From assembly GCA_037501455.1 (NCBI GenBank), contig CM074855.1, positions 57,419,001-57,483,000 on the forward strand: a DNA stretch of 64,000 nucleotides, written 5' to 3'. The notes beneath the pieces were generated by a model, which saw nothing but the letters and a program-made list of their open reading frames with translations, had not been told where the DNA came from and did no database searches. Made by a program: the position numbers and the translations under genes. Below are positions 13,357 to 64,000 of this stretch, piece by piece. Each line of letters begins with the position of its first letter. The first letter of the stretch is position 1. The DNA is from Lantana camara (lineage: Eukaryota; Streptophyta; Magnoliopsida; Lamiales; Verbenaceae).

Positions 13357-13388
<32 letters not shown>

Positions 13389-23469: not shown

Positions 23470-26463
23470 TGTAGCACCCCGAGCGTAGGGCACCACATCC
23501 CCCGCACTAGAGCCCAACACGTGTAGTGGAATGGAGAATCCATACACGCATCGAGCAATAGCGAACGGGAGACAAACAAAACTCACTCTCTAGCTAGGCG
23601 GCCTAACCCTCAGTCAGAGCACAAAACAGTTCATGGTATAGCGGAAGCGATAAAAGCAATTCATACAAAATTCCCCAAGATCACATATATACATATCACA
23701 TAGTCATAAGAGCATAATATTTCCAATTACAAATTTACAATGCCCTTCCCGGGCCAAAACATTTCAAGTATCAAAGTATTCGGAAAATAAATTTCATAAA
23801 CATAAGACATAAACCACTACGAATGCAATAAAGATGACTCGAGCTATGAAACAAGTAAGACTCGAAGACAACTTGCCGCCTAGCTCGACTCCCACGGTAC
23901 CTGCAACTCAAAGATGGGAAAAAGAAAGGAAAACCACGAGGGTTAGTCCTAATGACTAGTGAGGGGGCTACACACACACTCATAATACATATAGAGCAAG
24001 GCACTTAATCAAAATCATAAAAGGATCCATGAACCGGGGATGGTTTTTGCAAACTAAAACATTTCCCGTGATAATAACTATATATAATGAAAAGAAGTAA
24101 GGGCCATAGGCCAAAATCACAAATTTTAAGTATTTAAGAATCCATTCCCGTTTCATAAATCATACGAATTCACACAACTCGGCGAGTACGAGTTATACCT
24201 CCAACTCCCACAAACAAAGACCTAATCAAAGCAAAATTCATAAACCATCCTTCTTCGGGTGATAGAAGGGTTGACGGCCCTAACTATCGGTCAAATTCAC
24301 ACGAAACAAGGTTAATTACTTCCTTGAAACCTTCGGTGGTTGAATCCACCGGCTCAAGAGAAACGCCCTTCCTCAACCTCCTAAGGTTAGGCGAGACTCT
24401 CAAAGGAAAGTGTTGAGGGAAGAGCCCGGCGACCCCCCGGCCGTCCCGAGAGACCATGCCACTCTCCGGGCCCAAATCATAATTCAAAATTCATAATTTT
24501 CGTAAACTTCTCTTTCAAAGTTCAAAGCTCGCTTACACACTCACACTTAACGAAAGGATTTCAAAACAAATGTAAAATAGTTTATATACTTATACAAATC
24601 GTTTTCAAAAACTTATAACAAAGAGAACAAGTCCTCAAAGTACATACCATACATATATTTAACATATAGTATACATAAATCGCATGCGGGCTTAAAAACA
24701 TTTAGGGTTTTAGGTCATAATATCTAAAAGAAGAAAACCTCACCTTCCGAACACGTAGCGGTGACAAAAGAAAGCGAACCGGACGCCTAAGGGACAACCT
24801 CGTCGTCAACGGGAGGGTCAACTACACAAAACAAATAACAAGGGATACTCTTAGACTCAATATGTACCACATAAAGGCTCGGCAAATGCACATGCGTGTA
24901 AATGATGCAAATGAAATGAGATGAATTCATGTTTAGGTCATATAAGGTCACACATTGCATATGAACTCACATATCATAAACGAGGATGTAAAACGAACTA
25001 TAAATTCATAACATAAATCTTAACACACAATATAACATGTTAGAAGAAGCATGGGGATCAAATTAGTGTTGAGAAAGCGAAAAGAATGCGAAACGAAACA
25101 AGAAAATCGAAGTTTGGGGCAAAAGGAGCCACTGACCTAAATCCACCCCGGTGGATTTTTTTCAAAGGGAAAATCCACCCCCATGGATTTTCCAGGAGTT
25201 TCTGACTCAAATCCACCCCGGCGGATTTTTTTCAAAGGGAAAATCCACCCCCGCGGATTTGAGTCGGAAGCCAAAAAAACTCGAATTTTCAGCCCCAAAA
25301 CTCTCCAAAACTCATCCAAATTCGTGCAAACTCAAGATAGAACATATTAGGATCATAATATGTCATATATTCACTCAATCCATGTCAAAATCCAAGCTAA
25401 ACATCAAGATTCAAGTGAAGGAATGCAAGAGATATACATATCTTCAAGTTTATGCCAAAAACCCAAATTGAAACCTAAAGATTCCTAGATTCTCATGCAA
25501 AATCAGACCATACACTTATATTATAATGTCATAAGATCAATTAGGATGCAAAAACTCCAACAAAACACCAAGAGATCAAGCTATAATTTCAAAATTGGCA
25601 AAACCCTTACTATTCATAGAAATATTCATATCTTGATCAAATCACCACCAAATTGAGCAAATAAGGTATCTAAACAAAGAAGAGAAGATGGAGAAACAAA
25701 TTCCAAGCTTACCTTTCGAAAATGGAAGGATTTGATGAGGATTTGAGCTCAAAAGGTTGGAAGGTGAATAGTAAAATTTTGCTTCCTTCTTGGTCTCGGT
25801 TTTGAGCAGCTATTTCTCTCTTCTCTCCAAGGTTGGAACGAAATGAGGGGATTATGGCTGATAGAGGAGTATGCTAGGAGTATGTGGGGCCAAGGTTTAT
25901 TTAATTTGGTCAAATATATCAAAAGTTATGAATAAAAGAGTGGGCAAAGGTCTAAAATGGCATACGAGGCTTGTTTCGGTTAAATTTCGGAGGTCTACAT
26001 GAGCTTAGAAAAATATGAGGCTATGTTTATTGAACCCGAATCATGGATACGAGTTCAATGGAGGTGACGGAATTCGAATCCGAATTCCCGAGCTCAATTT
26101 GTGCTTCCCGGAACCCCAGGCGCGCTAAATGCTCTTTAGCCTCCTTTAGGTTCCGTCTCCAAAATTAAAATGAAAAGACAAACCAAACAAATTACAAAAT
26201 ATAAAATGAACATATAGTCAAGTTCATAACTCAAGTAATTCACGCATATCAAAAATTCGCAAGAAACAGAATTGAAATCGGACACGAATAGGGCAAAATT
26301 TCAAGCGTAGAGGGTTTAAACGTTCAAAACGAATTCATTCTTAAACCAAATAATTATCAAATATCCACATAAGAATTAATAACTATCAAGTATTCACGTA
26401 ATTAATTAATTAAATCGCGCACATAAAAATATACCTGAAAGTCTGAGCAATCGGGATGTTACA
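23470..26463 (-). repeat. A1 3' LTR (2994 bp)
   Basis: On the plus strand it runs TGTAGCACCCCGAGCG to GGGATGTTACA. The coding-strand leader signals are donor 1 AAAG/GTAAGC at 25712, acceptor 1 GTGTAG at 24822, a 78-nt middle exon (24744-24821), donor 2 GGAAG/GTGAGG at 24743, branch point CTAAC at 23942-23946 and acceptor 2 TTGCAG at 23901. Four AAATCCACC/GGTGGATTT-type hairpins lie at 25139-25260. Confidence 0.95.
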
Positions 26464-26499
26464 AACCTCCCTCCTTCAAAAGGACCTGTCCTCAGGTCC
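26464..26499 (-). other. A1 polypurine tract and pre-PPT hairpin
   Basis: On the minus strand GGACCTG-AGGA-CAGGTCC (26482-26499) is followed by the purine tract TTTTGAAGGAGGGAGGTT, which abuts the 3' LTR. The TGA stop of pol lies inside the hairpin. Confidence 0.9.
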
Positions 26500-29400
26500 G
26501 AAGCGAGGTCTTGAAAAGTTCCGGGTACAACTGTCTCATTTTCTCCTCGGTTTCCCAAGTGGCTTCTTCGGATTTCTGATCACGCCACAAGACTTTTACC
26601 AAGGGGATTTGCCGGTTTCTCAATTCTTGCATCTTCCGGTCCAAAACTTTAACCGGGTACTTCTTGATTGTCAAATCCGGCTCTAGTTGCACCTCTTTGA
26701 TTGGAATTATAGAAGGCTCATCGGGATAGTGTTTCCGGAGTTGAGAGACATGGAAAACATTGTGTATCCCGGTCAAACTCGGTGGTAGATCAAGTCGGTA
26801 GGCTACTTCCCCAACTCGTTCAAGAATTACAAAGGGGCCTAAGTAGCGCGGGTTAAGCTTCCCGCCTTTACCAATCCGAGCAAACCCTTTTCTAGGAGAT
26901 GCTTTTAGAAAAACCTTATCTCCCGCTTCAAACGCCAAGGGTCGTCTTCTTTTGTCCGTATAACTTTTCTGTCGGTCCTGAGCCGCCTTTAGCCTTTGTC
27001 GAATCACTTTCACTTTCTCGATGGTATCTTGGATTTCCTTTGGTTTCTTCGCTCTGTGGAGCTTACCATCCTTTGTCCATCTCCATTCATCAATATCCCA
27101 AAATAAAGGTGATCGACATTTCCTTCCATATAATGCCTCATACGGAGCCATACCAATCGATGTCTGAAAACTGTTATTATAGGCGAACTCAACCAAGTCC
27201 AAATGCTCATCCCACGAGTCTTGATAATCTAAGGCACAAGCACGAAGCATGTCCTCAAGATATTTAATTAACCTCTCAGATTGTCCATCCGTTTGTGGGT
27301 GAGATGCAGTACTAAACTGAAGTTTCGTTCCCATACACTTTTGTAATTCCTGCCAGAAACTCGCTGTAAACCGTGGATCCCTATCTGAAACAATACTGAC
27401 AGGTGCACCATGCAATCTCACAATTTCTTTCCGGTACAACTTGGCCAACTTAGGCACTTTATCGGACATCCGGACCTTGAGAAAGTGAGCCGACTTCGAA
27501 AACCGATCAATTATGACCCAAATTCCATCGAAACCTCCTTTGGTCCTTGGCAAGCCGGACACGAAGTCCATCGTCACTTGCTCCCACTTCCATTCAGGAA
27601 TTGGAAGTGGTTGGAGAGTTCCCCCCGGTTTCTGATGTTCAGCTTTCACCACTTGGCATGTTTGACACCTTCTTACATAATTGGCCACATCTCTTTTCAT
27701 GCCGTTCCACCAATACAAACTTCTTAAATCTCTATACATCTTAGTAGTACCGGGATGTACCGTATAAGCCGACTTATGCGCCTCATCCAACACCAACTGC
27801 TTAAGTTCATCTGGAACACACACCCGAGCCTTAAACCGGAATAATCCCGAAACATCAAACCCGAATTTTGTCTCTGGATCAATCCTTGCCTTAGCTACTA
27901 ATCTTTGAATTTCCAAATCATTAGATTGAGCTTCAATCAATCTTTGCCTCAAATCCGGTTGTACTGATATATTTACCAAACGGGCCTCTGAAACCAAGGA
28001 TATCGAACTCTGTTTACTTGAACCTGCTCCCAAATTCGAGATACTAACCTTTCTGCTCAAAGCATCCGCAACCACATTAGCCTTACCCGGATGGTATTGA
28101 ATTCTACAATCATAGTCCTCAAGTAGCTCAACCCAACGTCTTTGCCTTAGATTTAAATCCTTCTGTGTAAACAAATACTTAAGGCTTTGGTGGTCGGTAA
28201 AAACTTCAAAAGTAACCCCATAAAGATAATGACGCCATTTCATCAAAGCAAAAACAACCGCAGCTAATTCCAAATCATGAGTGGGATAATTTTTCTCGTG
28301 ATCTTTTAACTTCCTCGAGGCGTATGCTACTACTTTACCATTTTGCTTCAAGACACAACCGAGCCCATCCTTCGATGCATCGGTATAAACCGAGTAACCT
28401 TCAGAACCCTCGGGTAGGGTTAAAACCGGTGCCGAAGTCAATCTCTCCTTAAGAGTTTGAAAACTCTTCTCACACGCCTCGTCCCACTCGAACTTAACCT
28501 CTTTCTTTGTTAACCGAGTCAACGGGGAAGCAATCTTCGAGAAGTCTTTCACAAAGCGCCTATAATACCCCGCTAACCCTAGAAAACTTCTCACTTCAGA
28601 GGCATTCTTCGGCTGTTTCCATAAGATAACCGTTTCTATCTTTGCTGGATCCACTTCAACCCCATTCCCTGAGATAAAGTGACCCAAAAATGAAACCCGT
28701 TCAATCCAGAACTCACACTTGCTAAACTTGGCGAACAATCTATGTTCTCGAAGTGTAGATAATACCATTCTCAAATGCCGCGCATGATCTTCAACGGACC
28801 TCGAATACACCAGAATATCATCTATAAAGATGACCACGAATTTATCGAGGTAGGGCCGGAATATTCGGTGCATCATATCCATGAACGCGGCTGGGGCATT
28901 AGTAAGACCAAAAGGCATGACCACGAACTCGAAATGCCCATAACGAGTGTTGAAACCCGTCTTCGGTATGTCTTCCTCCCGGATACGCAACTGATAGTAC
29001 CCTTGTCTTAAATCTAACTTAGAATAAACACACGAACCTTGAAGAAGATCGAACAACTCTTCAATGTGAGGAAGTGGGTACTTATTTTTAACCGTTAACC
29101 GGTTCAGCTCACGGTAGTCAATACACATCCGCAATGTCCCGTCTTTCTTCTTTACAAACAGGACAGGAGCACCCCACGGAGAAGTGCTCGGGCGAATGTA
29201 ACCACACTCTAAGAGCTCATCAAGTTGCGCCTTCAGCTCTTTCAACTCCGCTGGAGCCATCCTGTAGGGAGATTTCGCATAAGGTTCCGCTCCGGGATAG
29301 AGATCTATTACAAATTCGACGTCCCGATCCGGAGGCAAAGACCCCAAATTCTCCGGAAAAACATCGGGGAACTCCTTCACGATCTCTGTCTCCTCGAGCT

Positions 29401-30676
29401 TGGCCTGATCTTTCGGTTTATTCAAAAGATAGGCCACGTAGCCCGTTGCACCGTCCCGGAACAATTTACTTGCTTCCATAAAGGATATAAACGGGCAGGC
29501 CTTCAATCTCTGACCCGCAAATACCGCAGAACCCAATGTCACCTTCTTAGCGAAGCAATCCATCATTGCTCGGTGTCGAAACAACCAGTCCATCCCTAAA
29601 ATTACCCCACATCTCTTGATAGGCATCTCAATCAAATCTGCCGGATACTCTTGATCTTCAACAACAACCGGGCACCCACGAAACACACGGTCCGCTACCA
29701 AACTGCCCCCGAGTGGGGAACTCACAACAAAGGAATCATCAAAGCAAGCAACAGGTAAAGAAAGTGCAGGAACACACCGGGAAGCAATAAAAGAATGCGT
29801 TGCTCCCGGATCAAATAATGCATGTAATGGAATGCCATGAATGCTAATAGTACCTTCAACGACGGCATTTGCATCCACCTCGGCATCCTCTTCTTCACCT
29901 TCAAGTGCATAGGCTCTGGCTTGAATAGGAGCTCTCGGAGGCCTAGTATTCAAGGGTTGAGGATCCTTCTTCTTAGGACAAGCGTTGATCATGTGACCGG
30001 GCTCCCCACAACCATAGCACCTTCCCAATTTCTTTCGGCACGTCTCCTCAGTATGATTGGGACCCCCGCAATAAGAACACTCAATTGGGTCCGGTAGAGC
30101 GGGTACCACAGTTTGTCCTTGGGGTCGGGGCTTCTTATTAAAATGATTAGAACCTTTGGGCTTGAAGACCGGAGGCCCACGTTGAGAGATAGTCCTCTTA
30201 CCCAAGTTTGATCCGGTGCTCGAACCTTGCCCCGAAGAGTAAGCCGGAGGTTTCATCCTCAAATTATGAGCTTCTACTTTCAGTGCCTTCCTTGTAGCCT
30301 TCTCCCAAGTGTCCACATTAGCGGCCTTTAGAGCATTCTGAACGCCATACCTCAGCCCATGAATAAAATTCCGGGCTTTCTGAGTATCATCGTTAGTGAT
30401 GTGAGGGGCATACGGGGCGAGTCTTTCAAATTCCAAAATATAATCTTCAACAGAACGATTCCCTTGTTTTAACTCTGTGAATTCCTGGAGTCTTCTTTCA
30501 CGGGCACTTGGTGGGATATACTTGTGGCGAAATTCTCTTATGAAGCTTTCCCAGTTAAACTCTTCACCCATTCTTTCTAACCGAGCTCTCATAGCCTTCA
30601 ACCAATTAGAGGCGGGACCCTGAACAAAACGAGCCGTGCAAACTGCCTTCTCATGAGATGGTGCAGGGCATATTTC
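26492..30676 (-). CDS. Gag-Pol polyprotein of chromovirus A1, open downstream of one nonsense codon
   Basis: A 4.2-kb open frame continues in the same frame as the Gag N-terminus at 30952. In order: the gag core ([19 protein letters not shown] near 30500); two zinc knuckles ([28 protein letters not shown], near 30090-29985); aspartic protease with a DPGATHSFI active site (near 29800); reverse transcriptase ([10 protein letters not shown] near 29120, FIDDILV near 28820); RNase H ([11 protein letters not shown] near 28380); integrase with an HHCC zinc region (27790-27650) and DDE core (MDFVSGLP near 27560, SDRDPRF near 27385, DGQSERL near 27285); GPY/F motif (RYLGPF near 26850); and a C-terminal chromodomain ([14 protein letters not shown] near 26590). 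There are no internal frameshifts. The DPGA variant of DSGA/DTGA is common in plant elements, so protease may be active. Confidence 0.95.
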
Positions 30677-30952
30677 CTAAATCCCCGAAATTTCTGACAA
30701 CCATTCCTCTGCTTTAATATCATCACCGCCGTACCACTTCGGAGGGTTGTTGTTCCGAAATTCCCTAAAAGCCGGGGTAACTTGACCCTTTTGAGCCTCC
30801 CCATAAGGATTATTCCTTTGATTCTGTTGCAACTGGTTTAAGAGAGCCTGAACAATATTTTCTGCATTCAATGGAGGAGGTGGTGGTGCTTGTGGAGGAG
30901 GTTGATTAAGATCCGGGGTTTGTTCCCTATCATTTCTCCTTCGTGGAGGCAT
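30677..30952 (-). CDS. Gag N-terminal fragment of A1, ended by premature TAG
   Basis: Starts MPPRRRNDREQTPDLNQPPP, with a basic then proline-rich stretch, followed by PPKWYGGDDIKAEEWL, the start of the gag domain. The frame stops at TAG (30677-30679) and the very next codons continue the conserved gag in the same frame. The related copies A2 and H carry TGG (Trp) at this position, so this is one base change (C to T on the plus strand at 30678). As read, Gag would be 91 aa and non-functional unless the stop is suppressed. The immediate context is not one of the well-known plant virus readthrough contexts. Confidence 0.9.
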   Translation of the reverse strand: MPPRRRNDREQTPDLNQPPPQAPPPPPLNAENIVQALLNQLQQNQRNNPYGEAQKGQVTPAFREFRNNNPPKWYGGDDIKAEEWLSEISGI

Positions 30953-31161
30953 CCTGAAAATTCACAAATCAAGAAAATATTGATGCATGGGGTTCAATGT
31001 ATGTTCATGGAAGCAATTAATTAAAATATAAACAATTAACTCACATAATTGTAAAGATGAATGCAAATAATCACATAACCCTAAGCCGAACGACCTAGAC
31101 AGACCCGACACGACTCTAGAGCTCCGGTTTTGCAACCGAGAGCTCTGATACCACCTAAGGA
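30953..31161 (-). other. A1 leader with PBS and GNRA hairpin
   Basis: PBS TGGTATCAGAGC is on the minus strand at 31142-31153, 8 nt from the 5' LTR. It overlaps a hairpin whose inner stem is CGGTT-GCAA-AACCG and whose outer stem pairs AGAGCT with AGCTCT (about 31118-31147). Confidence 0.9.
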
Positions 31162-31592
31162 TGTAGCACCCCGAGCGTAGGGCACCACATCCCCCGCACT
31201 AGAGCCCGACACGTGTAGTGGAATGGAGAATCCATACACGCATCGAACAATAGCGAACGGGAGACAAACAAAACTCACTCTCTAGCTAGGCGGCCTAACC
31301 CTCAGTCAGAGCACAAAACAGTTCATGGTATAGCGGAAGCGATAAAAGCAATTCATACAAAATTCCCCAAGATCACATATATACATATCACATAGTCATA
31401 AGAGCATAATATTTCCAATTACAAATTTACAATGCCCTTCCCGGGCCAAAACATTTCAAGTATCAAAGTATTCGGAAAATAAATTTCACAAACATAAGAC
31501 ATAAACCACTACGAATGCAATAAAGATGACTCGAGCTATGAAACAAGTAAGACTCGAAGACAACTTGCCGCCTAGCTCGACTCCCACGGTAC

Positions 31593-32435
31593 CTGCAACT
31601 CAAAGATGGGAAAAAGAAAGGAAAACCACGAGGGTTAGTCCTAATGACTAGTGAGGGGGCTACACACACACTCATAATACATATAGAGCAAGGCACTTAA
31701 TCAAAATCATAAAAGGATCCATGAACCGGGGATGGTTTTTGCAAACTAAAACATTTCCCGTGATAATAACTATATATAATGAAAAGAAGTAAGGGCCATA
31801 GGCCAAAATCACAAATTTTAAGTATTTAAGAATCCATTCCCGTTTCATAAATCATACGAATTCACACAACTCGGCGAGTACGAGTTATACCTCCAACTCC
31901 CACAAACAAAGACCTAATCAAAGCAAAATTCATAAACCATCCTTCTTCGGGTGATAGAAGGGTTGACGGCCCTAACTATCGGTCAAATTCACACGAAACA
32001 AGGTTAATTACTTCCTTGAAACCTTCGGTGGTTGAATCCACCGGCTCAAGAGAAACGCCCTTCCTCAACCTCCTAAGGTTAGGCGAGACTCTCAAAGGAA
32101 AGTGTTGATGGAAGAGCCCGGCGACCCCTCGGCCGTCCCGAGATACCATGCCACTCTCCGGGCCCAAATCATAATTCAAAATTCATAATTTTCGTAAACT
32201 TCTCTTTCAAAGTTCAAAGCTCGCTTACACACTCACACTTAACGAAAGGATTTCAAAACAAATGTAAAATAGTTTATATACTTATACAAATCGTTTTCAA
32301 AAACTTATAACAAAGAGAACAAGTCCTCAAAGTACATACCATACATATATTTAACATATAGTATACATAAATCGCATGCGGGCTTAAAAACATTTAGGGT
32401 TTTAGGTCATAATATCTAAAAGAAGAAAACCTCAC
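31593..32435 (-). other. Candidate intron 2 in the A1 5' LTR leader
   Basis: Donor AAG/GTGAGG, branch point CTAAC 37-42 nt before the acceptor, a pyrimidine-rich tract, and acceptor GAGTTGCAG/G; 843 nt. The equivalents are 840 nt in A2, 839 nt in H and 760 nt in I. Confidence 0.6.
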
Positions 32436-33404
32436 CTTCCGAACACGTAGCGGTGACAAAAGAAAGCGAACCGGACGCCTAAGGGACAACCTCGTCGTCA
32501 ACGGGAGGGTCAACTACACAAAACAAATAACAAGGGATACTCTTAGACTCAATATGTACCACATAAAGGCTCGGCAAATGCACATGCGTGTAAATGATGC
32601 AAATGAAATGAGATGAATTCATGTTTAGGTCATATAAGGTCACACATTGCATATGAACTCACATATCATAAACGAGGATGTAAAACGAACTATAAATTCA
32701 TAACATAAATCTTAACACACAATATAACATGTTAGAAGAAGCATGGGGATCAAATTAGTGTTGAGAAAGCGAAAAGAATGCGAAACGAAACAAGAAAATC
32801 GAAGTTTGGGGCAAAAGGAGCCACTGACCTCAATCCACCCCGGTGGATTTTTTTCAAAGGGAAAATCCACCCCCATGGATTTTCCAGGAGTTTCTGACTC
32901 AAATCCACCCCGGCGGATTTTTTTCAAAGGGAAAATCCACCCCCGCGGATTTGAGTCGGAAGCCAAAAAAACTCGAATTTTCAGCCCCAAAACTCTCCAA
33001 AACTCATCCAAATTCGTGCAAACTCAAGATAGAACATATTAGGATCATAATATGTCATATATTCACTCAATCCATGTCAAAATCCAAGCTAAACATCAAG
33101 ATTCAAGTGAAGGAATGCAAGAGATATACATATCTTCAAGTTTATGCCAAAAACCCAAATTGAAACCTAAAGATTCCTAGATTCTCATGCAAAATCAGAC
33201 CATACACTTATATTATAATGTCATAAGATCAATTAGGATGCAAAAACTCCAACAAAACACCAAGAGATCAAGCTATAATTTCAAAATTGGCAAAACCCTT
33301 ACTATTCATAGAAATATTCATATCTTGATCAAATCACCACCAAATTGAGCAAATAAGGTATCTAATCAAAGAAGAGAAGATGGAGAAACAAATTCCAAGC
33401 TTAC
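32436..33404 (-). other. Candidate intron 1 plus middle exon in the A1 5' LTR leader
   Basis: Donor AAAG/GTAAGC at 33404; acceptor TTTGTTTTGTGTAG at 32514; then a 78-nt middle exon ending GGAAG/GTGAGG. The structure recurs in A2, B, G, H and I despite sequence divergence. Predicted from motifs and conservation only. Confidence 0.55.
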
Positions 33405-34155
33405 CTTTCGAAAATGGAAGGATTTGATGAGGATTTGAGCTCAAAAGGTTGGAAGGTGAATAGTAAAATTTTGCTTCCTTCTTGGTCTCGGTTTTGAGCA
33501 GCTATTTCTCTCTTCTCTCCAAGGTTGGAACGAAATGAGGGGATTATGGCTGATAGAGGAGTATGCTAGGAGTATGTGGGGCCAAGGTTTATTTAATTTG
33601 GTCAAATATATCAAAAGTTATGAATAAAAGAGTGGGCAAAGGTCTAAAATGGCATACGAGGCTTGTTTCGGTTAAATTTCGGAGGTCTACATGAGCTTAG
33701 AAAAATATGAGGCTATGTTTATTGAACCCGAATCATGGATACGAGTTCAATGGAGGTGACGGAATTCGAATCCGAATTCCCGAGCTCAATTTGTGCTTCC
33801 CGGAACCCCAGGCGTGCTAAATGCTCTTTAGCCTCCTTTAGGTTCCGTCTCCAAAATTAAAATGAAAAGACAAACCAAACAAATTACAAAATATAAAATG
33901 AACATATAGTCAAGTTCATAACTCAAGTAATTCACGCATATCAAAAATTCGCAAGAAACAGAATTGAAATCGGACACGAATAGGGCAAAATTTCAAGCGT
34001 AGAGGGTTTAAACGTTCAAAACGAATTCATTCTTAAACCAAATAATTATCAAATATCCACATAAGAATTAATAACTATCAAGTATTCACGTAATTAATTA
34101 ATTAAATCGCGCACATAAAAATATACCTGAAAGTCTGAACAATCGGGATGTTACA

Positions 34156-36255
34156 CCACTGGAACCCAAACAGCTAACAGACACTCCCTGGAAAACCACT
34201 GAACAACTGAACACACACAGAACTCATGACTCAGACTCCAAACACAACCACAAAGACGCACGGCCATGCACACGAATACAATGATGCACAGTTAGTTCAC
34301 ATTTATCCAATTTAAGTCATTCATGTCGAATCACAATCATTTCACACCTTAGAGGATGCATAACTTATAGAATTCATATCATCCCATATGGAATATAATT
34401 CGAAGCATAATAATTTAATCTCGTCATGGTCCAAATCTCGTGAAGTTAAAACATTGATCATATAACAAATTTGATAAATAAATACATAATGCATAATGTT
34501 TAATATTCCAACAAATAGCATACTTGTTCGATTCATTCAAAATTAAATATAACATATCATTTCATAATTTATTTCTCAAGTTTCATATAATCCCATCATC
34601 AATGTAGTTTTCAAATATTACACTAACACCCTATAAATAAAATATTCTTAAGCAAGTAAGCATAAAACGAGATAATTAAATTCAATAAATTACGAATCAT
34701 GCTTTCATACAACATAACATATTCTCATATATCATACAATTCATAATTTCCATTTATTGCTCATATATGATCACATTATACAATTAAAAACAATTAACGA
34801 AAATAAATACAATAACTTCAAAAAATTCATAACAAATCAACCGAGCATCCGATTGACGAACCGAAAGTGGCGTTGGACTCACCATAACGAAACGGACCTA
34901 CTGTCCAAAATTCATCAGAATACCGCCATCGTAGCCGGCCGAACAGCCACCGGCCTCCACCGGAACACCGCCTCTGGCGGTCGGAAAAATCCCCCGAAGG
35001 ACAGAAACGTGCACGTCGGCCTGCTTGACAAAAGCCCTTAACCAATTTCAGAAAATACCAAACATGCCGGACTTCGTTGACAAAAAACCGAACTAAATTC
35101 CAATTACGAAAACTGAAATTAAACGCTAACCGTAAAAGGAAAATAAAATCCGAGCATACCGTTGGAAAGCTTGTAACGAAGTCTTCGAAAGCCCCTAGCC
35201 AATTTGCCGGAAATATCGTCAGAAAAGGGACCCGCCGGTCCAGGGCCGGTCTGCCGCCGCCACCGGTTCTCGAGTCGTGGCCAACACAATCAGCTACGTC
35301 TCAACATTCCAAGCAACTTTCGTGAAGGAGCAACCACCAAAAACCCACCGGAAAAGGACCAAATCCGCCGCCGAAAAATTGCCGCTGCGCCATCGCCGGT
35401 TCAGCCACCTCCACCACGATTTGCTCCAATCTGATGCCAGAAAAGGAATCAGGGGGCCGGAAAAGGTAGGGAACCGGCCCCTCTCGCCGGAAAGGATCGC
35501 CGGAACGCGGCGGACCTGCTCGCTACAGTGCACGCGCCGCCGCGGAGTGAATTCAGGTGGAGCGTGCACCGCCTTCCGGCCACCAATGGCCGCGCCGTCT
35601 TCAACACTCTAATTGTCAGGACCTCGCGCTCCAAAACCGCCCAAGATTCGATCGATTCCGATGTCGGAGGCCGTCGGAATCCGCTGGCGAAGTGGCGGGG
35701 GTAAATACCACCGCCTGTACCTTGTCGTAGCGCCACCACCGCTGGGTTTCAGGCCTCGATTCTTGTACCATCGTGACGGGCTCGTCGAGCTAATAAATTT
35801 CCACTAGTCACACTTCGAATTCCGTCTAGAAACGAGTGAGAACAGGCTTATGCGTGTAATTTCACCTTGACTGCGTGAATATTGCCAGGGGAACGATGAA
35901 CGTTGGAGGAAGAAGCTGGATTTAAATGGCACGGATTATGAGGATTCGGGGTTTATATCTCGGGTCCTCGTACACAAAAACGGTCAGAAGAACGGGCTAA
36001 CGAAGTCAGAATGCGGCAAACTTAGAGTCTGAGGACTCGTTTCGATGCCCCGAACGCAAAAGAGGGGTCAAAGAGGTCGAACTCTCCACCGAACGAGAAA
36101 TGACCGAATAACCCCTAAAAAGATAAAATTACAAACAGACCCCTAAACTCTAAAAGAGTTCAAAATAGGGCCAGGAGAAACACAAAATAATATAATTAGT
36201 CACATAATAAAGTTGAAACGTGGTGTACCTTATACGTCGGACGAACGGGGTGTCA
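34156..36255 (-). mobile_element. Family F LTR, right part, with GC-rich core
   Basis: Continues the F LTR after A1 and ends ACGAACGGGGTGTCA at 36255. On the coding strand the acceptor GGTTCCAG falls at 34159, directly at the A1 insertion site. The section 34900-35790 is strikingly GC-rich with many CCGG/GCCGG words, unlike the AT-rich surroundings. Several frames are open across it for 60-110 codons, but none resembles a known protein. Confidence 0.75.
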
Positions 36256-52827: not shown

Positions 52828-52931
52828 GAGAGTGTCCCGTCTCTCAAACAATTAACGAGAGAACCCCGTCTCCCGAGCAAGTAACAAGAGAGCCCCGTCT
52901 CTTGACAACCCTGAGAGAATCCCCGTCTCTC
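52828..52931 (-). repeat. Four tandem GAGAGACGGGG...TCTCTC hairpins of element I
   Basis: Coding-strand units lie at 52828-52845, 52857-52874, 52886-52903 and 52913-52931, with 27-29 bp spacing. One unit has the compensated stem AAGAGA/TCTCTT. It matches the array in element C. Confidence 0.9.
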
Positions 52932-55581
52932 ACACACACGAAATAAAATTCAGGAAGCAATTAAACAATTAATTACAATTAACACGCAAGGCTCACATAA
53001 AAATTATAATTTACAAATAATGGTTCATGTAAACGGGTAATAACAATTAAGGAGTTATATACGGGAACAATAAAATAATACTAATAAATAAGGAATAACG
53101 TACAAGAATATTAAAATAACAATTAAGTAATGGTGCACGTGGTATGCATGATTGAGTGTACCGTTCACCAAGGATTGGAGTTCTGGAACTGAATTAATTC
53201 AGTTGAATACTTGATTCTTTAGTTGAGATTTTCCCGCTTTGTAGCACTGCGGTTCGATATTCCCATTTCTGATAACCATCTCTGCGCTTGTGCTAATTTC
53301 TAACATAATCCGTAAATCATCATTAATCACCACATCTTCAGACCCGTTTTAATCCCAGATTTGCCGGTTGAACAAGAACTGATTCCCACATTTACTTTCT
53401 GACCTTGAATTGAAAATACCCCTGAGTTTCCGTCATGGTTGTACGTTCAAGCTTAAAAGACTAGCTTTGTGCTCCAAACAAGCTTTTATCTATTTTACAG
53501 AGAGCACAGCTTTTACCATTTCCTCGACCTTGTAATCGAGGTGAAGCAATTTCCGAAGCAAAGATCTTACACCCTTTTTTTTTTTTTGAAATCCGAACGT
53601 TGAGCTCTTATTCTCTTAGTAAGTAGCAAGGTGGGTATTTGCTATAGAGGATCCCGTGAGAGTAATTCAGCAAGCACACTTGCATAGAAGCCGAAAAATC
53701 AGGTCCTAGTGAAACGTCTTCCTTTGACCCCTGAAATTTGATGACATACCTACCAATTCTGCGAAATATCTTGAAAAAGAGGATCAATCAGTCTTCCGTC
53801 CTTCTGAAGTGTTCATGGTACACTGGTATGTTTATGGAGGCAACGGCGACAGCACGTATGAGAGCATGGTGTACTATCACAGGCATCTCTAGGGTATAAG
53901 TAATAACTTCGTAAGAAAACTCTTGTTGGAATTAACCTACTAAAACTGAAGATTGCTTCCAAGTATTACCCAACTGAATCCTTTCTATTTACTGAGTCAA
54001 ATGATATCCTCAGGCTATCGGAGAACTACGGACGGTGTACTCATTTCTGGAAAATGATAATGGAACGAAGGTACTGTCAATAATGGGACTTTCCTTTGAA
54101 TGAGAGGGAGAAAGTTTAGATTATTGACAACCTTCTTCACATGATTCTGATAGAGAATTCCAGGAAGAATTGATTCTCTGAAAATTCCCAACTTCCTTGA
54201 GTGCTATCGAACTTCAGAATTTAAACTTATTTTCAGACCGGCTCTCCCCCTTATGAAAATAGAAATTTTCTTATCCTTTAGATTCATTCTATCTTTTCCC
54301 AATTGCAAGCTTCTCTGCTGACTCAATTCCCGTAACCTTTTCCCTTGTTCTACTTGTTATTAATCAAGATTTTGGATTGAGGATCCTTTTCTAATTCTCT
54401 CTGCCAGCATCATACTCAACTTGAAGCTCCCTGACTGTCACCACTTTGATTTGATATTAAATTTTCCAGCATCCCACAACCCTTCTGCTACTCGTGAAAT
54501 TGTCATATCCTGTACTTACCACCTACTGCTTCTAGATTCAGATTTGCCAAGTAAACACCCTGATTCAGAGCAAGAAAAGTTCTTTTTCCTACCCTTACTG
54601 AATCCCAAAAATGCTGATTAATTTTCTGAAGGTTGAAAGACCCACAGAACATTTATCTGCTTGAACTCATCATCATTTTCCGGTTCCCAAAATTTTCCAA
54701 TATTTATTTCATACCCCTCCTCCTACTAAATCCTGGATCAGTAAATTCTCACAATCCCAAACATTTCTAAGCTTCAAACAGAATCGAATAACCCGGTTAC
54801 CAACATAATATCCGATGATTCAGAGATCTCCTCGTTAACTTCAAATTGATAGAAATAGGAGCAAAGATTGTGCAGAGCATAGGGAAAGCCTATTGACAAT
54901 AAACACTAAATAATGCATGATGGTTAAAATGTCAATGCACGTAGCAATCTACCAACAATTTACAATGCAACACGTTAAAACAATTATATCACTTTGAAGG
55001 TATTCATATAAATAAGGAAATGTAAAGAAAGTAAATAATTTGATCATGTATCCAAAGCATCAAGTAGGAAATTTCAAATACAATTAGAACGACATTTGTA
55101 AATGAAAAGCAATTTAATTAACAATTATGATGCACGTGCTTATGAATGCATTGAAGAACCTGGCACCATTGAAATGTTGTGCTCGATCTTGGTGTCCATT
55201 CTTGGTTGGCCGCATTGCCACTTGGTCCAAGCGGCTGATCATCCTCTTATTTTTAAAAGTTCTCCGGTCTCGATTCATACATTTCCCAAAACCTGTCACA
55301 TAATTGATGCTGATAACAAGAATTTAATATAAATTGAAACAAGTATTTCATCAATATTTAAAATAAACACGTTGGTCACATAAATTTCTAAACAATTCAA
55401 GATCACTCCATGGAAATTAATAGCATGAATTAATACAAAGTACAAGCTATCAAGTATTTCAGGTAATTCAAAGAATCCAAGTACAAATAAAATGCAAAAC
55501 TCTCAGATTATCAAGTAATTCCTACGCCGTACGACCTAGACTCGACACGACACGACACTAGAACCTCGGTTTTGCAACCGG
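52932..55581 (-). other. Element I internal region, no recognisable genes
   Basis: About 2.6 kb of AT-rich sequence with only short open frames. Near 53120-53170 the coding strand shares GTGAACGGTACAC and CATGCATACCACG with the post-gag segment of element C. A T-rich run lies at about 53575-53588. I find no zinc knuckle, RT or integrase motif on either strand. Confidence 0.7.
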
Positions 55582-55593
55582 GCTCTGATACCA
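55582..55593 (-). other. Element I primer-binding site
   Basis: TGGTATCAGAGC on the minus strand, 7 nt from the 5' LTR at 55601. The following bases form CGGTT-GCAA-AACCG, with outer pairing AGAGCC/GGTTCT (including one G.U). Confidence 0.9.
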
Positions 55594-55600
55594 CCTTAGA

Positions 55601-58176
55601 TGTAGCACCCCGGACACGTGGAGGTGCCACACCCCCGCAATATAGGTCAATCCACACACGAAACGGCCAATCCGTACATGAACCAACCTATAGCGAACGG
55701 GTGACAATGCAATAGACGACAAGCTAGGCGGGAAAACCTATACATGCGACATAATAAAGCGGAAGCATAAAACAATCACTATCAAATATTTCCATTTACC
55801 GAATAGAACATATTCTAACTTACATATCAATACATTATCATCTCCTTAAAAAACTAACATATAACAGTAAACATGATTCTCTCGAATAATAAATAAACAA
55901 TCAAATAATGCACCGTGTTTGACTCAACTCTAACAACTGGACTCGACTCACTTCCCGCCTAGCACGCACCTGCAATACCTGAAAGGTGGAGTTGTCAGTC
56001 TGTGAAGACCGAGTGAGGGGTTTATATACATATTAGCGCAGATAACATGCAAGTTATATTCTCGGGTAAAGATTATAAAAGATAAATATAGGATTTCAAG
56101 AATAAAGTATTCTTCGCCCGAGAATACAACGGTCAATATTAGATACTTGTTCTTTCATGCAATCGATAAACATGCTTGCTTGATTATAAATTAATAGGTG
56201 ATCACGCAATTCAATTTCCGTGCAATCGTGCGATAGTGTACTCAATTAGCACATTCATGGAATGAAAATCATGCAATCAATACATGGCTTGCTTGTAACA
56301 CGATAGGGTTGTTCTTCCTGTGGTTGGACGGACAACCACTAGCTCTAAGACCAGCCCAGCGCCCTCACTAAGGAGAACCTGGCCAGGAGAACGCATGTAC
56401 ACGATAGGCCTTTGTTCTTCTTGGGGTTGGACGGACAACCACTAGCTCTAAGACCAGCCCAGCACCCTCACTAGGGAGGACCTGGCCAAGAGAACACACG
56501 AACACGATACGGTATTGTTCTTCCTGTGATTGGACGGACAATCACCAGCCCGAAGACCAGTCCAGCGCCCTCACTAGGGAGGACCTGGCCAGGAGAACGC
56601 ACTACTTGCTTTCATGACATGACTTAAAATGATCAATGATTTATAGAGATTATAATTATAAATACCTTTTTGGCCGAAATATCACAAAAGGGATATACGG
56701 GTTCTATATAACTACAAATTAAACCTCACCTGACAGGCGACACACGACTCATGATGGCGTGAACGTGATCATGCTTGACAATCTCCGCCCTGGAGAATCA
56801 CTGGACATGAAACGGGACAATGTACGTGCATGAGACCATAATTCCAGTATATTATCTCATATAATGACGCACGGCATGATCATACACGAGACATCGAGCA
56901 ATACACAGTGTAACATGATAACATGTTGTTTCGACATATAATCAATCATATAATAGCAATTTGGGGTCAAATAAGCAATTGGAACGAGGGGCTAAAAATG
57001 TAATTTTTATGCAGAAAGTTTCTGCACTACCAGAGAGCTGGGAACGGCCGTTCCAGGTTTTAGTTCAAAGTGGGAATGGCCGTTCCCTCTGTCGGGCTCC
57101 CCGAAGATGGGAACGGCCGTTCCCTCTGTGAGACAAAGTGGGAACGGGTGTTCCCGTCCTCGCCGCCTGACACATTATTCAAACAATGGGAACGGCTGTT
57201 CCCCAATTGCAAAGGGGACGGGAACGGCTGTTCCTGTTACACAGAAGGTTCAGAAACAGGGGAGAAGAACAGGGGAAATACGAACACCCTTCCAACCTCA
57301 ACAAAGCTCACATAATTCAATCCTTTATGTTATCATTCATGAAAGGAAACATGTATATATGCATAGAGTGCAATAAAACCCAACATAAATACATGTTTCA
57401 TGCCTTGAACATCATAATTCCCAATTCAAGCTCATAATTGAGTTTAGCATATAACTTCAAGTTCTTCAAGAATTCAAACATAAATTCAAGCTAAAAGCAT
57501 GAAATCATACCCCTAGCATCAAATAATCATGTTAGCTAGCTCAACCACTAACCCTAGTCTCATACATGAATTCCAAGAAATTACCTATGTATACCTTGAG
57601 ATAAAATAATGGAAGAAGATGATAAAATGAATGATCAAGCTTCAAAACTCCCAATTTTCTTGAAAAGAGTTGGTGAATTTGATGAAATCTCCTTTCCCTT
57701 TTTGGTATTTGTGGCTTGGTGGAAAAGGGAGAAAGAATGGATGATAATTCTTGATGGAATGAAAAATGAAGAACAAGGAAGAGATGCATACCGATATATT
57801 TGGGAAAATATGTAATATTTATGAGTTAATCCTCTAAATTCCATAAGTTATGCAATTGAGGATACAAGGTTTGGAAAATGATCAATTTAGTCCTCAAAGG
57901 TTTTCATGCAATTAGGTCCTTAAAGAAAGGGAAATGAACAATTAAGGGCAACAAATTTGCACAATTAATTCATGTAACAATTAAATTCCATTCGTACATG
58001 AATTCTCAATTTGACACGTATTTCATATAATTTTCACGTAATCATGTTGAACACAATATATAAAAATTAATGTAACACGTTTAAATTAAATAAACAAAAA
58101 TAATAAAATAAAGTCCTAACGCTCGAAGCCCACACGTGTCGAGCGTACCTGACTGTCTGAAATTCGGGGCGTTACA
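55601..58176 (-). repeat. I 5' LTR (2576 bp)
   Basis: Colinear with the 3' LTR, with scattered substitutions. Donor 2 is the consensus CAG/GTGAGG (56729). Acceptor 1 is at 56801, acceptor 2 at 55970, and donor 1 is CATAG/GTAATT (57584). The palindrome array has lost symmetry in the unit nearest the array end. Confidence 0.9.
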
Positions 58177-59934: not shown

Positions 59935-60955
59935 TACACATTAACCTCCTTCTTTGGTGATAGAAGGGTTACGCGACCCTAGCGATCCATTATAGGTGAG
60001 GGGAGTACAAGCTACACCAAACCCTCAGGATCTCCATTCCCCACCAAACCTCCTAGTGAGTTCAGGGGTAATCCGATCAAGGTGGAGACTACGCTCAGGC
60101 TTAACGCAATGGCCCACTACCGTACCGGGCGTCCTGACTCGCAGGCTCCGGGGCCCAATGTTACCAATACATTACATTATCAATACAATTTAAATCATTA
60201 CCCGTAACATTAAATTGAACATTATCAAATATTAACTTATAAGGAATTAACTAGCAACAACCATGCTATTCATACCTCTCCGTGTCAAATCCTTTACTCT
60301 ATCTTACGGCTCATAAGAGGCACACGATTTGAAGCGTGGTTAATGTTGCAACATATTATGAATCGAACCAAATCAAAACATAACAAGTGTACATAGGCTT
60401 GTACATAACGTATCATACTTGCAAATCCTTAGCAAATTCATAAACTTACATATTTCGCATATATTTACTTATACTTGAAGTTATAGTTCGCATATATAGA
60501 AAATGAGCACGTTTCAATAGGGTTTAACTATAACCTAACCTCACCTTACACCAACGAAATAGAGAACAAGACGATTGATCCACCCTGGAATCAACACGGC
60601 TACGAAACACCACCCGGGTGCACCTGAACAAACTGAAGACAAAAAAGTACACAACATAGACTCAACGATGAACCACATAGATACACGGTGTATGCAAAGG
60701 TACCTAAGAGAGGTAAACACATAGGTAAGGTTCATATTCAAACTCATTTCATACAAAGGAAGGCATTTCACAAAGTGGAGATACATAACAAAATACTAAA
60801 TTAAACTCTCTCGTGACGTCATACCTAGATTGTCGAGAAGATTGGGTGTAATGATTCAAGTATAAAATGCATCAAATAACGTGACATTAAAAACAAATAC
60901 AGAAATTAAACTCACACGTGGCACAAACCTATACGTGTAGTCAAACGGGGTGTCA
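59935..60955 (-). mobile_element. Family B LTR (B2), right part, internally deleted
   Basis: Continues 38311 after H. The coding strand starts TGACACCCCGTTTGACTACACG at 60955. Donor 2 TAAG/GTGAGG is at 60544, acceptor 1 TTGTTCAG at 60624, and the middle exon is 79 nt. Compared with B1, about 1.5 kb of the early LTR (including exon 1 and donor 1) is missing. A second, partly degenerate LTR-start-like segment (TTACACCCAATCTTCTCG) lies near 60850. Confidence 0.8.
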
Positions 60956-61097: not shown

Positions 61098-64000
61098 TGT
61101 GACACCCCCTCTTCTCGGCAATCCAGATATGACGGCACGAGAGAGTTTAGTTCTGTATTTTCATGAATTATGTGAATTCACATGTCTTACTTGTCAATTT
61201 GTATTTTATTTTAACTACGTGCGCATTAGAATTTAATTAAATGCACTTGGACTCAACTGTCCAATATTTTCAGATTAGGGACCTAATTCTAATTAGGGTG
61301 TTTTAAGCCTTCACGGCTACCTTGAGTTCGGGAATTCGAATTCGAATTTCAAATTCACCATTGGATTCATTTTGATGATTCAGGTCCAATGGATCTAGCC
61401 TCGCCTTTTTCTGAAGCTGTTTGACCTCCCTAAAGATTTAATTTCTAACCGGTTGAACCGAACCGAACCGAACCGGTTTTCTTAGACTCAATCGTCCAAT
61501 ATTTGCGAATTAGGGACCTATTATAATTAGGGTGTTTTAGCCTTCGTGGCTACTTGAGTTTGAGAATTCAAATTACAGTTCTAACCTTGTCATTGAATTC
61601 GTTTCGATGATTCGGATTCAATGAATTAACCTTTTATTTCTTTCTAAAGTCGTTTGATCGGTTTACCGGTTTAAATCTGATCCCTATGGATCGGATACCA
61701 TTTGAACCTACCCGTTTAGCCGACCCATTTCAGCCCTTGAAAGCTAAAAATATCAGCCTTTCTCTCCCTCTCCCACTTTGATCGTTCAAAGCACAAGGAA
61801 GAAAGGAGAAGAAGAAAGCCTCCCCCTTTGGCCTCAAAGCTTTGGCTCGAGCTTGTGCCTCATCTGACCATCCGATCGAAGAACCACGGTAACCATTGTA
61901 TTCCTCTCGTTATGTGTTTTGATTCTACGTGCATTTTGTGGTATGATTCCTTGTCTTCGTGGCTATTTAGGGAAGGAGATAAATAGTGCTGGATTCGGGA
62001 TTTGGTATGTTCGTGCTTGTTTCGGGTGGCCTAACTTGCATTTATGTGATCAACGTGTTATTCTTGTTTCGTGGTATGAATTTTGGGGTGTTTCATGGTT
62101 GTTTGGTGCAAATATGGTCACTCCCACGACCATCCTCCAGGAGATGCCTCTGTTTTGCCTTCGCGGCCACGACTGGCGACGTCATACGTGCTCCGTTTTT
62201 TCTGAATTTTGGACTATAGAAACCCTTTTGAATGTAGAACAACTCCCAATTGGAATTAACTCAAAATTCATTCTAGATTGTAAGTTATAAGCCTTTTAAT
62301 TTTGTGTCGCCACTTCACCGAAATTATGCTTTTGTCCAACTTCAAACCGACGCCATTTTCGTCTCGCTTTGAACCATGATTCGAGTCATATATCATTTGA
62401 AAGATCTATGTGTCTAGTTTGATTTCTAAGAAACAAAACTTAATTCCCGTTTCTCAAACTCAAGTTATTAGCTTTTTCCTACAGCTTGTCCATTTCAGAA
62501 AATTTCCAGCTTTTGCCCATTTTTGCTCCAAACCATTTCTTGTGCTCTTCTTTTGCTTTTCCTGCACTTTTCACTTCCAAACTTGTTCCTAACTTGTTTT
62601 ACCATCTGTATGTGTATGTATTTGTTCTTTTATACATTTTATGTTCCTTAAGTAATGTGAATTGTTTGCACGAATCGCATATGCACCTTGTTAGGTGTTT
62701 AGATGCTTCATTACGCATTAATTGTACACGTGAACATGCTTTAATGCATATTATGAATTTGTTAAGCTATAATACGTGTGTGTTTTTGCACGTCTTGCAT
62801 GAATTTGATACATGTATTAGCTTTGACTAAGTATTTGGATCTTTTACGTGACTAAGCATATGTCGTGCGTTTATATGGTTCATTCTCGAGTCTAAGTCTT
62901 CCATTTTGTCTTCTTTTTGTCTAGGTGCACCCAGGGTGGTGTTTCGTGATCCGAGTTGATTCTGGGGTGAATCATTTGTCTCGTTCTTGGCCACACCGGT
63001 GTAAGGTGAGGTTAGGTTATAGCTGAACCCTAATAAAATGTGCTTGTTTTCTATGCATGCGAACTATAACCTTACTTATATGTAAATACTTGCGAGATAT
63101 GTAATTTTATGAATTTGTCATATGTTTGCAAGTATGATACGCAATGTATGAGCCTACATACGCTCGTTTGGGTTCGTTTTGATTTGTAATGTTTTGGAAC
63201 ATTAAATGACGCTTCAAACCGTGTGCCTCTTATGAGCTGAGAGACACGAGCTAAGGAATATCTTAATGATTTGACACCGAGAGGTACGTAAAGCGTGGTT
63301 GTTGTAAGGTAAGGTATGTAACGTTAATGTTTATATAATGAAAACGTATGTAATGTTTTGTAGCGGGTTAAGTAATGTAATGAAATTGTAACGTAAATGG
63401 GCCCCAGAGTCTGCGAGTCAGGACATCCGGGACGGCATCGGGCTTTCGGAATAAGCCTAAGCGTAGTCTCCATAATGATAGGATTGTTCCTGAACTCACG
63501 AGGAGGTTTGGTGGGGGATGGATATCCTGAGGGTGGAGAAGCTTGCACTCCCGTCGACTGTAATAGATGGTTAGGGCGTATACACCCTTCCATCGTTGAA
63601 GAAGGAGGTTAATATGTAAGTATGTATTCATTTGATTTCATTTGCTTGCATTATTAGTCGGAGGAGCCCAAGATGGGACTAGGTACTCGTATCCGCCGAG
63701 TTATGTATGTATACATATTTGTTAAAGTTCGTGAAACGGAGATAAACTCTTTAATAATATAAAATATGGTAATTTAAAACGTTAGGATACTATATGAAAT
63801 GATTTGTTACGTTTTATACGTATGTTAAGATTGTAAGTTAATTTAAGTTTGTTTTGTTTTAGTTTTGATTTGTTACGACCCTTATATGCATGTATCACGG
63901 GAAAATGATCTGGCATGCAAAACATATCCCTGAGTTCATGAACAATGATATTTAAATGTGTTGTGCTCCTTTATATATGTGTTGCGTGCGTGTGTCGCCC
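61098..64000 (+). mobile_element. Family B LTR (B1), truncated by window end
   Basis: Starts TGTGACACCCCCTCTTCTCGG within pol of the B2 element; the left flank is AAGGG. Leader signals: exon 1 is pyrimidine- and then purine-rich, donor 1 CACG/GTAACC at 61889, acceptor 1 CTTTTTGTCTAG at 62924, an 81-nt middle exon, and donor 2 TAAG/GTGAGG at 63006. The window ends before the intron-2 acceptor. The block at 62200-62433 is shared with the H and C LTRs. Confidence 0.8.
63684..63706 (+). other. Conserved ACTCG...CGAGT hairpin in intron 2 of B1
   Basis: Part of a motif (ACTCGTAYYCGCCGAGTT) found at the matching place in A (24176-24194, reverse strand), H (45416-45434), F and B2. Confidence 0.6.

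What the first reader, a model, noticed from the sequence alone, without database searches (positions are those of the whole stretch)
23470..63010. Two-intron leader hidden inside the LTRs of unrelated-looking families
Every sufficiently complete LTR (A1 both copies, A2, B1, B2, G, H, I) shows the same ordered splice signals on its coding strand: a GTAAG/GTGAG donor after a short leader; a pyrimidine-rich acceptor; a 70-85 nt middle exon; a donor that is AG/GTGAGG in most; CTRAY; a pyrimidine tract; and GCAG. F shows the same signals around a shorter exon of about 42 nt. Intron 2 is 840, 843, 839 and 760 nt in A2, A1, H and I, although the sequences differ greatly. Splice motifs are established; the inference is that these elements make a spliced mRNA with a shortened leader, while the genomic RNA stays unspliced. 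The latter follows because reverse transcription of spliced RNA would erase the introns from new LTRs. I know of no description of a conserved intron pair lying wholly within plant chromovirus LTRs.
Basis: partly seen in the sequence, partly recalled or inferred. Interest (0 to 1): 0.87.

Follow-up and report, generated by a model that had tools for sequence, protein, structure and literature searches.

The report
Spliced leader in plant retrotransposon LTRs
Several kinds of a plant jumping gene carry, inside their repeated ends, what look like real introns that would strip false start signals (and probably the replication primer site) from the protein-making RNA, while the uncut RNA could serve for copying.

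Summary
Ten distinguishable LTRs in this plant window (I and N look like one family) show ordered spliceosomal signals on the coding strand: donor 1, acceptor 1, a 60-85 nt exon, donor 2 (GTGAGG in 9 of 10), and, where that part survives, a branch-point word and acceptor 2. LTR F has no BLAST similarity to the others, yet has a TATA box, an ATG-free leader and the same layout.

The best evidence is start-codon avoidance: 1 ATG in the 800 nt before donor 1 against 26 in the 800 nt after it (8 LTRs). The stretch after acceptor 2 is as ATG-rich as the introns, so it is unlikely to be leader. A further acceptor lies 1 nt before the gag start in 5 of 7 leaders examined. I infer that gag-pol mRNA is exon 1-exon 2-gag, with U5 and the primer-binding site inside the last intron, so such RNA cannot be reverse transcribed and LTR introns are not lost. 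No RNA was available: splicing, start site and poly(A) site are unproven. My searches found no described plant LTR intron; a 2005 paper predicted similar sites in an Athila-lineage element.

The parts
31162..34155 (-). A1 5' LTR (twin at 23470-26463, 99.67% identical, TSD CCACT)
   Evidence: self-BLAST; flanks
33405..33579 (-). A1 exon 1, about 175 nt, no ATG in its last 130 nt; 5' end inferred
32514..33404 (-). A1 intron 1 (GTAAGC...GTGTAG), 25 ATGs
32436..32513 (-). A1 exon 2, 78 nt, no ATG
31593..32435 (-). A1 intron 2 (GTGAGG...CTAAC...GTTGCAG), 843 nt, 22 ATGs
31142..31153 (-). A1 primer-binding-site motif TGGTATCAGAGC, inside the proposed intron from donor 2 to the gag acceptor
   Evidence: sequence; meaning of the motif recalled
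30954..30955 (-). acceptor 3 of A1: ATTTTCAG|G, gag ATG at 30952-30950
   Evidence: rank 1 of 10 acceptors in the leader
23470..26463 (-). A1 3' LTR with the same four junctions (introns start 25712 and 24743, exons start 24821 and 23900)
3082..6173 (-). A2 LTR: intron 1 starts 5406, exon 2 4436-4359, intron 2 starts 4358, exon 3 starts 3518; gag acceptor CTTTCAG|GATACC at 2876
38312..46071 (+). B1 LTR (nested H at 39473-43203): intron 1 starts 39060, exon 2 44791-44875, intron 2 starts 44876, exon 3 starts 45715; gag acceptor ATCTAG|GATGTC at 46284
50009..58176 (-). element C: LTRs C1 50009-52582 and C2 55600-58176, same four junctions (C1: intron 1 starts 51991, exon 2 51209, intron 2 51138, exon 3 50378)
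21733..36252 (-). G LTR split by A1 in its exon 2 (36252-34156 and 23464-21733): intron 1 starts 35865 (tentative), exon 2 starts 34198, intron 2 starts 23425, exon 3 starts 22231
39473..43203 (+). H solo LTR: donor 1 40441 (weak), exon 2 41948-42017, donor 2 42018 (GTAAGA), exon 3 starts 42751
61100..64000 (+). I LTR, cut by the window end: donor 1 61889 (weak), exon 2 62925-63005, donor 2 63006
36300..37479 (+). J partial LTR: exon 2 36325-36398, donor 2 36399, exon 3 starts 37095
59936..60738 (-). N partial LTR: exon 2 60623-60545, donor 2 60544
37480..38312 (-). K partial LTR: CTAAC and TGTGCAG|GTGTCG, exon 3 starts 37870
12316..15676 (-). F LTR: TATAAATA 14551, donor 1 14448, exon 2 13540-13481, donor 2 13480, exon 3 starts 12649
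10023..10028 (+). M element: GATTACAG|GATGCC, acceptor 1 nt before an ATG (10026) that opens a gag-like frame (likeness by eye)

Best explanation
These Ty3/gypsy chromodomain elements start transcription in the LTR, roughly 70-180 nt upstream of donor 1. The pre-mRNA is spliced from donor 1 to acceptor 1, then from donor 2 to the acceptor one base before the gag ATG. In A1 this gives a leader of about 250 nt without upstream ATGs, so that gag is the first ATG. The second intron carries away the rest of the LTR and the primer-binding site. Spliced RNA is therefore the messenger and cannot be a template; unspliced RNA keeps the PBS, is poorly translatable (64 ATGs before gag in A1) and is the genome, so the LTR introns are renewed at each cycle. 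Acceptor 2, inside the LTR, would then be an alternative: most likely the 3' splice site of the terminal exon in the 3' LTR or of short LTR transcripts. Shown: the signals, their conservation, the ATG pattern, the gag acceptor. Inferred: start site, splicing itself, pairing of donor 2 with the gag acceptor, role of acceptor 2, RNA fates.
For: ATGs: 1 in the 100 nt before donor 1 summed over 8 LTRs, 26 in the 100 nt after; 4 in 698 nt of exon 2 in 9 LTRs, none in F's 60 nt; 31.4/kb and 27.4/kb in introns 1 and 2, 28.0/kb after acceptor 2. Exon 1 (130 nt) plus exon 2 hold 5 where random LTR windows hold 42.4 on average (0 of 20000 draws as low). GC is 0.43 and 0.52 in exons 1 and 2, 0.38 and 0.40 in introns 1 and 2; T is low in exon 1 only (0.27; exon 2 0.335, intron 2 0.338). 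Donor-2 words are the most shared 8-mers of the exon-2 zone. CTRAC lies 24-47 nt before acceptor 2 in 7 of 8 LTRs (H has CTGAA). Gag start: AG|G directly before it in 5 of 7 leaders (A1, A2, B1, M, L001; A2's ATG is itself mutated to ATA). AGGATG makes up 44 of 2781 ATGs of the window; binomial P 2e-8 counting A2, or 4e-5 with A1, A2 and B1 as one lineage. The site is the best-scoring acceptor of the leader in 5 of 7. The best donors between LTR and gag score 0.7, 2.9 and 2.0 in A1, A2 and B1, below donor 2 at 4.1. F: TATA box 103 nt before donor 1, no ATG between them.
Against: No transcript was examined. By a Markov estimate from their own composition exons 1 and 2 would hold about 12.5 ATGs, so part of the shortage is composition (1 seen vs 5.5, 4 vs 7.0). 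Donor 1 is weak in H and I, donor 2 weak in F. Other GTs outscore donor 2 in several LTRs, and the part after acceptor 2 holds donors scoring 5.8 in J, 4.3 in G and 3.8 in B1, so another donor for gag is not excluded. L004 has its acceptor 4 nt before the ATG, F's gag acceptor ranks 5 of 16. In L001 only 95 nt precede the assumed gag ATG and the frame is open upstream with another ATG; M's gag likeness is by eye, its best BLASTP match to the A1 gag piece has E = 1.3; B1's gag frame stops after 16 codons. Acceptor 2 is the best conserved acceptor, yet this model gives it no part in the gag mRNA. The first 40 nt after acceptor 2 are ATG-free in 8 of 8 LTRs (0 of 320 positions), which could mean that a short piece of exon 3 is used.
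Confidence: 0.62

Rival explanations
1. One reading: only the two LTR introns are removed; the mRNA runs exon 1-exon 2-exon 3-U5-PBS-gag, perhaps with ribosome shunting over a hairpin formed by the inverted repeat GCTAGGCGG/CCGCCTAGC.
For: Acceptor 2 with its branch point is the best conserved acceptor. Repeat arms were found in 8 of 8 LTRs (imperfect in K and A2) and pair slightly better within than between LTRs (mean -22.8 vs -20.7 kcal/mol, permutation P 0.0086).
Against: The LTR after acceptor 2 is as ATG-rich as the introns and the leader adds more, 17 ATGs in A1. The PBS would stay, so such RNA could be copied and would lose the introns. The acceptor at the gag start would be unexplained. 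Against shuffles the pairing of the exon 3 start with the rest of the LTR is below 5% in 1 of 8 LTRs only (K).
Confidence: 0.16
2. Recursive or other splicing past acceptor 2: donor 2 joins acceptor 2, whose AG|GT or another donor further down then joins the gag acceptor; or acceptor 2 belongs to a short LTR-only or 3'-LTR terminal exon. With a zero-length exon 3 the final gag mRNA equals that of the best explanation.
For: GCAGGT in 7 of 8 acceptor-2 zones; the zero-offset donor is among the four best donors after acceptor 2 in A1, A2, B1, C2 and H; J and G have stronger donors further down (5.8, 4.3).
Against: The regenerated donors score only 0.8 in A1 and 1.9 in B1 and B2 reads GCAGGGGC; AG|GT is common after ordinary acceptors (recalled); a long exon 3 would bring ATGs.
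Confidence: 0.12
3. Fossil promoter module: the first exons of a host gene were captured long ago and splicing no longer matters to the element.
For: Exon 1 and intron 1 are about 50% identical between A1 and A2 although U3 and intron 2 are 72% and 82% identical, so modules were exchanged.
Against: Donor, ATG-poor exons and acceptors persist in LTRs that diverged beyond alignment, and the exchanged exon 1 kept a donor and lacks ATG.
Confidence: 0.05
4. Chance plus motif-hunting: with some 180 GT and 120 AG per LTR, an attentive reader finds chains.
For: Sites were picked by eye, and several single sites rank low.
Against: Counts that need no choice of motif (8-mer enumeration) and the ATG densities agree with the chain.
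Confidence: 0.04

Closest known systems
Diaspora, Athila-lineage element of soybean (PMC1142308; passages read)
   Same: Long LTR; donor sites predicted in the LTR and acceptors predicted around the gag start codon
   Different: Other lineage; prediction only; the paper calls the relevance unknown and says that no intron upstream of gag had been reported; the passages show no architecture shared by several families and no PBS argument
BARE of barley (PMC3735527; abstract and section list read)
   Same: Separate RNA pools for translation and reverse transcription; one pool spliced
   Different: Per the abstract the spliced RNA encodes only Gag and the pools differ by cap and poly(A); an LTR intron is not mentioned there
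EVADE and Ogre (passages of PMC12786077 and PMC6317226)
   Same: Functional introns in plant LTR elements, partial splicing
   Different: The introns described in those passages lie in the coding part, not in the LTR or in front of gag
Foamy virus pol mRNA (PMC7828637; passages read; donor position in the LTR recalled)
   Same: Pol made from spliced RNA while the genome is unspliced
   Different: Gag comes from unspliced RNA (recalled); no intron pair within the LTR is described in the passages
RTBV and CaMV leaders (PMC5902531; passages read)
   Same: Plant reverse-transcribing viruses with a splice donor in a leader full of short ORFs and with the Met-tRNA primer site
   Different: Main long ORF reached by ribosome shunting; no LTR

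Membership tests
Ty3/gypsy chromovirus | gag, protease, RT, RNase H, integrase in that order | tested here: met
   Pfam on five pieces of the A1 ORF: Retrotrans_gag, zf-CCHC, RVP_2, RVT_1, RT_RNaseH and Integrase_H2C2 pass their cut-offs; rve is below its own (28.8 vs 32.6 bits)
Ty3/gypsy chromovirus | C-terminal chromodomain | tested here: met
   PF00385 28.2 bits, cut-off 25.1
Tekay/Del clade | RT phylogeny with named references | not tested
   No labelled references used; long LTRs and overall look recalled as Tekay-like
Plant LTR element with functional intron | spliced transcripts seen | not testable with these tools
   No RNA data
Spliceosomal intron, intron 2 | donor, branch point, pyrimidine tract, acceptor in order | tested here: met
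   (CTRAC in 7 of 8 LTRs), F by sequence
Spliceosomal intron, intron 1 | donor, branch point, pyrimidine tract, acceptor in order | tested here: inconclusive
   Donor and acceptor present; no YTRAY word within 60 nt of acceptor 1 in 9 LTRs; F not tested for it
Leader that is spliced before translation | exons poor in upstream ATG, introns not | tested here: met
   exons 1 and 2 only, not the part after acceptor 2
Intron-mediated enhancement intron | TTNGATYTG-type motif (recalled) enriched in the first intron | tested here: not met
   one mismatch allowed: 2.38/kb in the first 300 nt of intron 1, 2.22/kb in the rest, 5.30/kb in U3; no exact match in these parts (7 LTRs)

The most novel reading that the evidence does not exclude
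A whole clade of long-LTR plant elements uses introns to settle the conflict between translation and replication: the primer-binding site lies inside an intron that starts in the LTR and ends one base before the gag ATG, so splicing makes messenger and intron retention makes genome. The same LTR signals would also settle which poly(A) site is used: in the 5' LTR the exon with acceptor 2 and poly(A) site is skipped in favour of gag, in the 3' LTR, where no gag follows, it becomes the terminal exon.
Probability: 0.38. Interest if true: 0.88.

Novelty: new variant of a known kind. Interest (0 to 1): 0.74.

Why it matters
How one transcript of a retrotransposon serves both as messenger and as genome is called a major question in the BARE paper's abstract. 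A splicing switch written into the LTR, with the primer site in the intron, would be a simple answer, would help explain why such LTRs are long and carry conserved blocks, and can be tested on existing RNA data. It would also warn annotators that solo LTRs of these families can donate ready-made promoters, exons and splice sites to neighbouring genes.

Tried and rejected
Relatives elsewhere: RT pieces against IMG/VR, two scans, no relative; GTDB genomes, one scan, four loci that look like plant contamination or chimeric contigs, of which L001 and L004 reach the gag start; plasmids, three remote hits of no use; protein database with a gag piece, two hits. Rfam gave no match at gathering scores. 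Intron-mediated enhancement motif not enriched. Ribosome shunting over the inverted repeat: weak support, kept only as a rival. A donor near the LTR end (GTGAGT in A1 and A2, GTGAGA in K) paired with the gag acceptor was set aside because exon 3 would bring its ATGs along. No claim of absence from print goes beyond searches in open-licence PMC papers. Passages also read: LORE1 and plant CRM elements, no LTR intron there; sunflower survey, which says Tekay elements were absent from its expressed set; cotton element, LTRs acting as introns of host genes.

Rows dropped before counts: one search used A1, A2, B1, C2, G, H, I, J, N, each for the segments it has; A1b, B2, C1 (twins or decayed), K and L (partial) were left out, and F was not yet known. 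F was added. The acceptor-2 counts use A1, A2, B1, C2, G, H, J, K.

Full report
What is there. The window is plant DNA filled with nested Ty3/gypsy elements. A1 (23470-34155, minus strand) has LTRs of 2994 bp that are 99.67% identical, target duplication CCACT, and gag-pol with gag, protease, reverse transcriptase, RNase H, integrase and chromodomain by Pfam on pieces. The gag frame of A1 is broken by one in-frame stop at 30679-30677. Related LTRs or LTR pieces are A2, B1/B2, C1/C2, G, H, I, J, K, L and N; F is an LTR without detectable similarity to these at 15676-12316.

The observation. The same chain is present in A2, B1, C, G, H, I, J and N as far as each LTR reaches. Exon 2 is 70-85 nt in these and 60 nt in F. 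Acceptor 2 is preceded by CTRAC at 24-47 nt in 7 of 8 LTRs; the eighth, H, has CTGAA in its place. TGCAG stands at acceptor 2 in all 8 aligned LTRs; F has TTCAG. Exhaustive counting of 8-mers, which needs no prior choice of motif, puts the donor-2 words first: 8 of 9 LTRs, against a maximum of 5 in 100 shuffles; TTGCAGGT is shared by 6 of 8 against a maximum of 4. The donor-1 zone shares no word beyond chance, because promoter, exon 1 and intron 1 differ: A1 and A2 are 47% and 50% identical in exon 1 and intron 1 but 82% in intron 2. Donor 1 therefore rests on its consensus score (best or second best of the LTR in A1, A2, B1, C2, and F; weaker in G, H and I) and on the ATG boundary.

The ATG test. 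If the exons are leader of a translated RNA they should lack ATG, and the introns need not. Exon 1 (130 nt, 7 LTRs) has 1 ATG in 910 nt; exon 2 (9 LTRs) 4 in 698; intron 1 278 in 8854; intron 2 162 in 5905; the LTR after acceptor 2 82 in 2932. Across donor 1 the change is sharp: 1 in 800 nt before, 26 in 800 nt after (8 LTRs with F). The shortage in exons is partly base composition: a Markov estimate expects 5.5 and 7.0. The ATG-poor zone extends about 175 nt upstream of donor 1 (2 ATGs in 1225 positions over 7 LTRs) and then ends, which is where I place the start of transcription. In F a TATAAATA box lies 103 nt before donor 1.

The extra acceptor. Between LTR and gag, A1 reads ATTTTCAG|GATGCC, A2 CTTTCAG|GATACC (the ATG itself mutated), B1 ATCTAG|GATGTC, M GATTACAG|GATGCC, and the contaminant contig L001, whose reverse transcriptase piece is 61-62% identical to A1's, TACCTAG|GATGGT. 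L004 has CTATAG|GAGAATG and F CATCATAG|CTCATAATG. So 5 of 7 have AG|G directly before the start codon or its remnant; AGGATG accounts for 44 of 2781 ATGs of the window. The site is the best-scoring acceptor of the leader in 5 of 7. Caveats: only 95 nt precede the start in L001 and the frame is open upstream of it; M is gag-like by eye, without a significant BLASTP match; A1, A2 and B1 are one lineage. Between LTR end and gag the best donors score 0.7 to 2.9 in A1, A2 and B1, 3.3 in M, against 4.1 for donor 2; after acceptor 2 within the LTR some score higher (J 5.8, G 4.3). Donor 2 is the conserved one, so I take it as the partner.

Mechanism. The PBS motif (31153-31142) is then inside the intron. 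Acceptor 2 remains to be explained. I think it serves the 3' LTR, where no gag acceptor follows, as the start of the terminal exon; this is inference. The arms GCTAGGCGG (just after acceptor 2) and CCGCCTAGC (near the LTR end), 208-347 nt apart in 8 LTRs, may fold; pairing is better within than between LTRs (P 0.0086) but against shuffles below 5% in 1 of 8 only.

What is known. Passages of the 2005 Diaspora paper report predicted donors in the LTR and acceptors at the gag start, of unknown relevance, and state that no intron upstream of gag was known. A 2025 review, in the passages read, says plant LTR elements generally lack introns, with Ogre and EVADE as notable exceptions. Phrase searches for an LTR intron found two papers, neither about plant LTRs by title and start of abstract. 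I found no description of this architecture in the library searched.

Limits. No RNA, no second plant genome and no genome-wide set of copies could be examined; the genome search tool did not complete. All LTRs come from one 64 kb window; two contaminant contigs add gag starts only. The clade name Tekay is recalled, not tested. Splice-site weights are recalled approximations.

Noticed in passing
31568-31578 and 31285-31293 (A1, minus), and the same places in A2, B1, C2, G, H, J, K: Inverted repeat GCTAGGCGG ... CCGCCTAGC brackets 208-347 nt between acceptor 2 and the LTR end (arms imperfect in K and A2); possible RNA stem around a poly(A) region.
   Followed up: partly
exon 2 of C, H, J (TCTCCAGGGCGGAGA), I (CACCCAGGGTGG), N (CACCCGGGTG): A short hairpin-like word follows acceptor 1 closely, with different letters but similar self-complementarity in different LTRs.
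   Followed up: no
9417-9607 +: An inverted repeat of about 190 bp made of two LTR starts (TGTAACGCCCCG...CGGGGCGTTACA), self-match 83% identical, like a miniature element built from U3 ends.
   Followed up: no
12307-21733 -: Two 4.5 kb units, each gag plus LTR, 99.87% identical, fused to the G LTR end at 21732: an LTR-internal-LTR-internal array.
   Followed up: partly
about 28-30 nt from the LTR start in A1, A2, B1, C2: CAG|GTA lies close to the LTR start and scores among the top five donors of the LTR.
   Followed up: no
46072-47620 and 52584-55593: Internal regions of elements B and C are short and hold no ORF of 150 aa or more, so they look non-autonomous.
   Followed up: no
32824-32952 (A1 intron 1) and 50700-51011 (C1 intron 2): Short direct repeats with spacings of about 70 and 102 bp lie inside the introns.
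   Followed up: no
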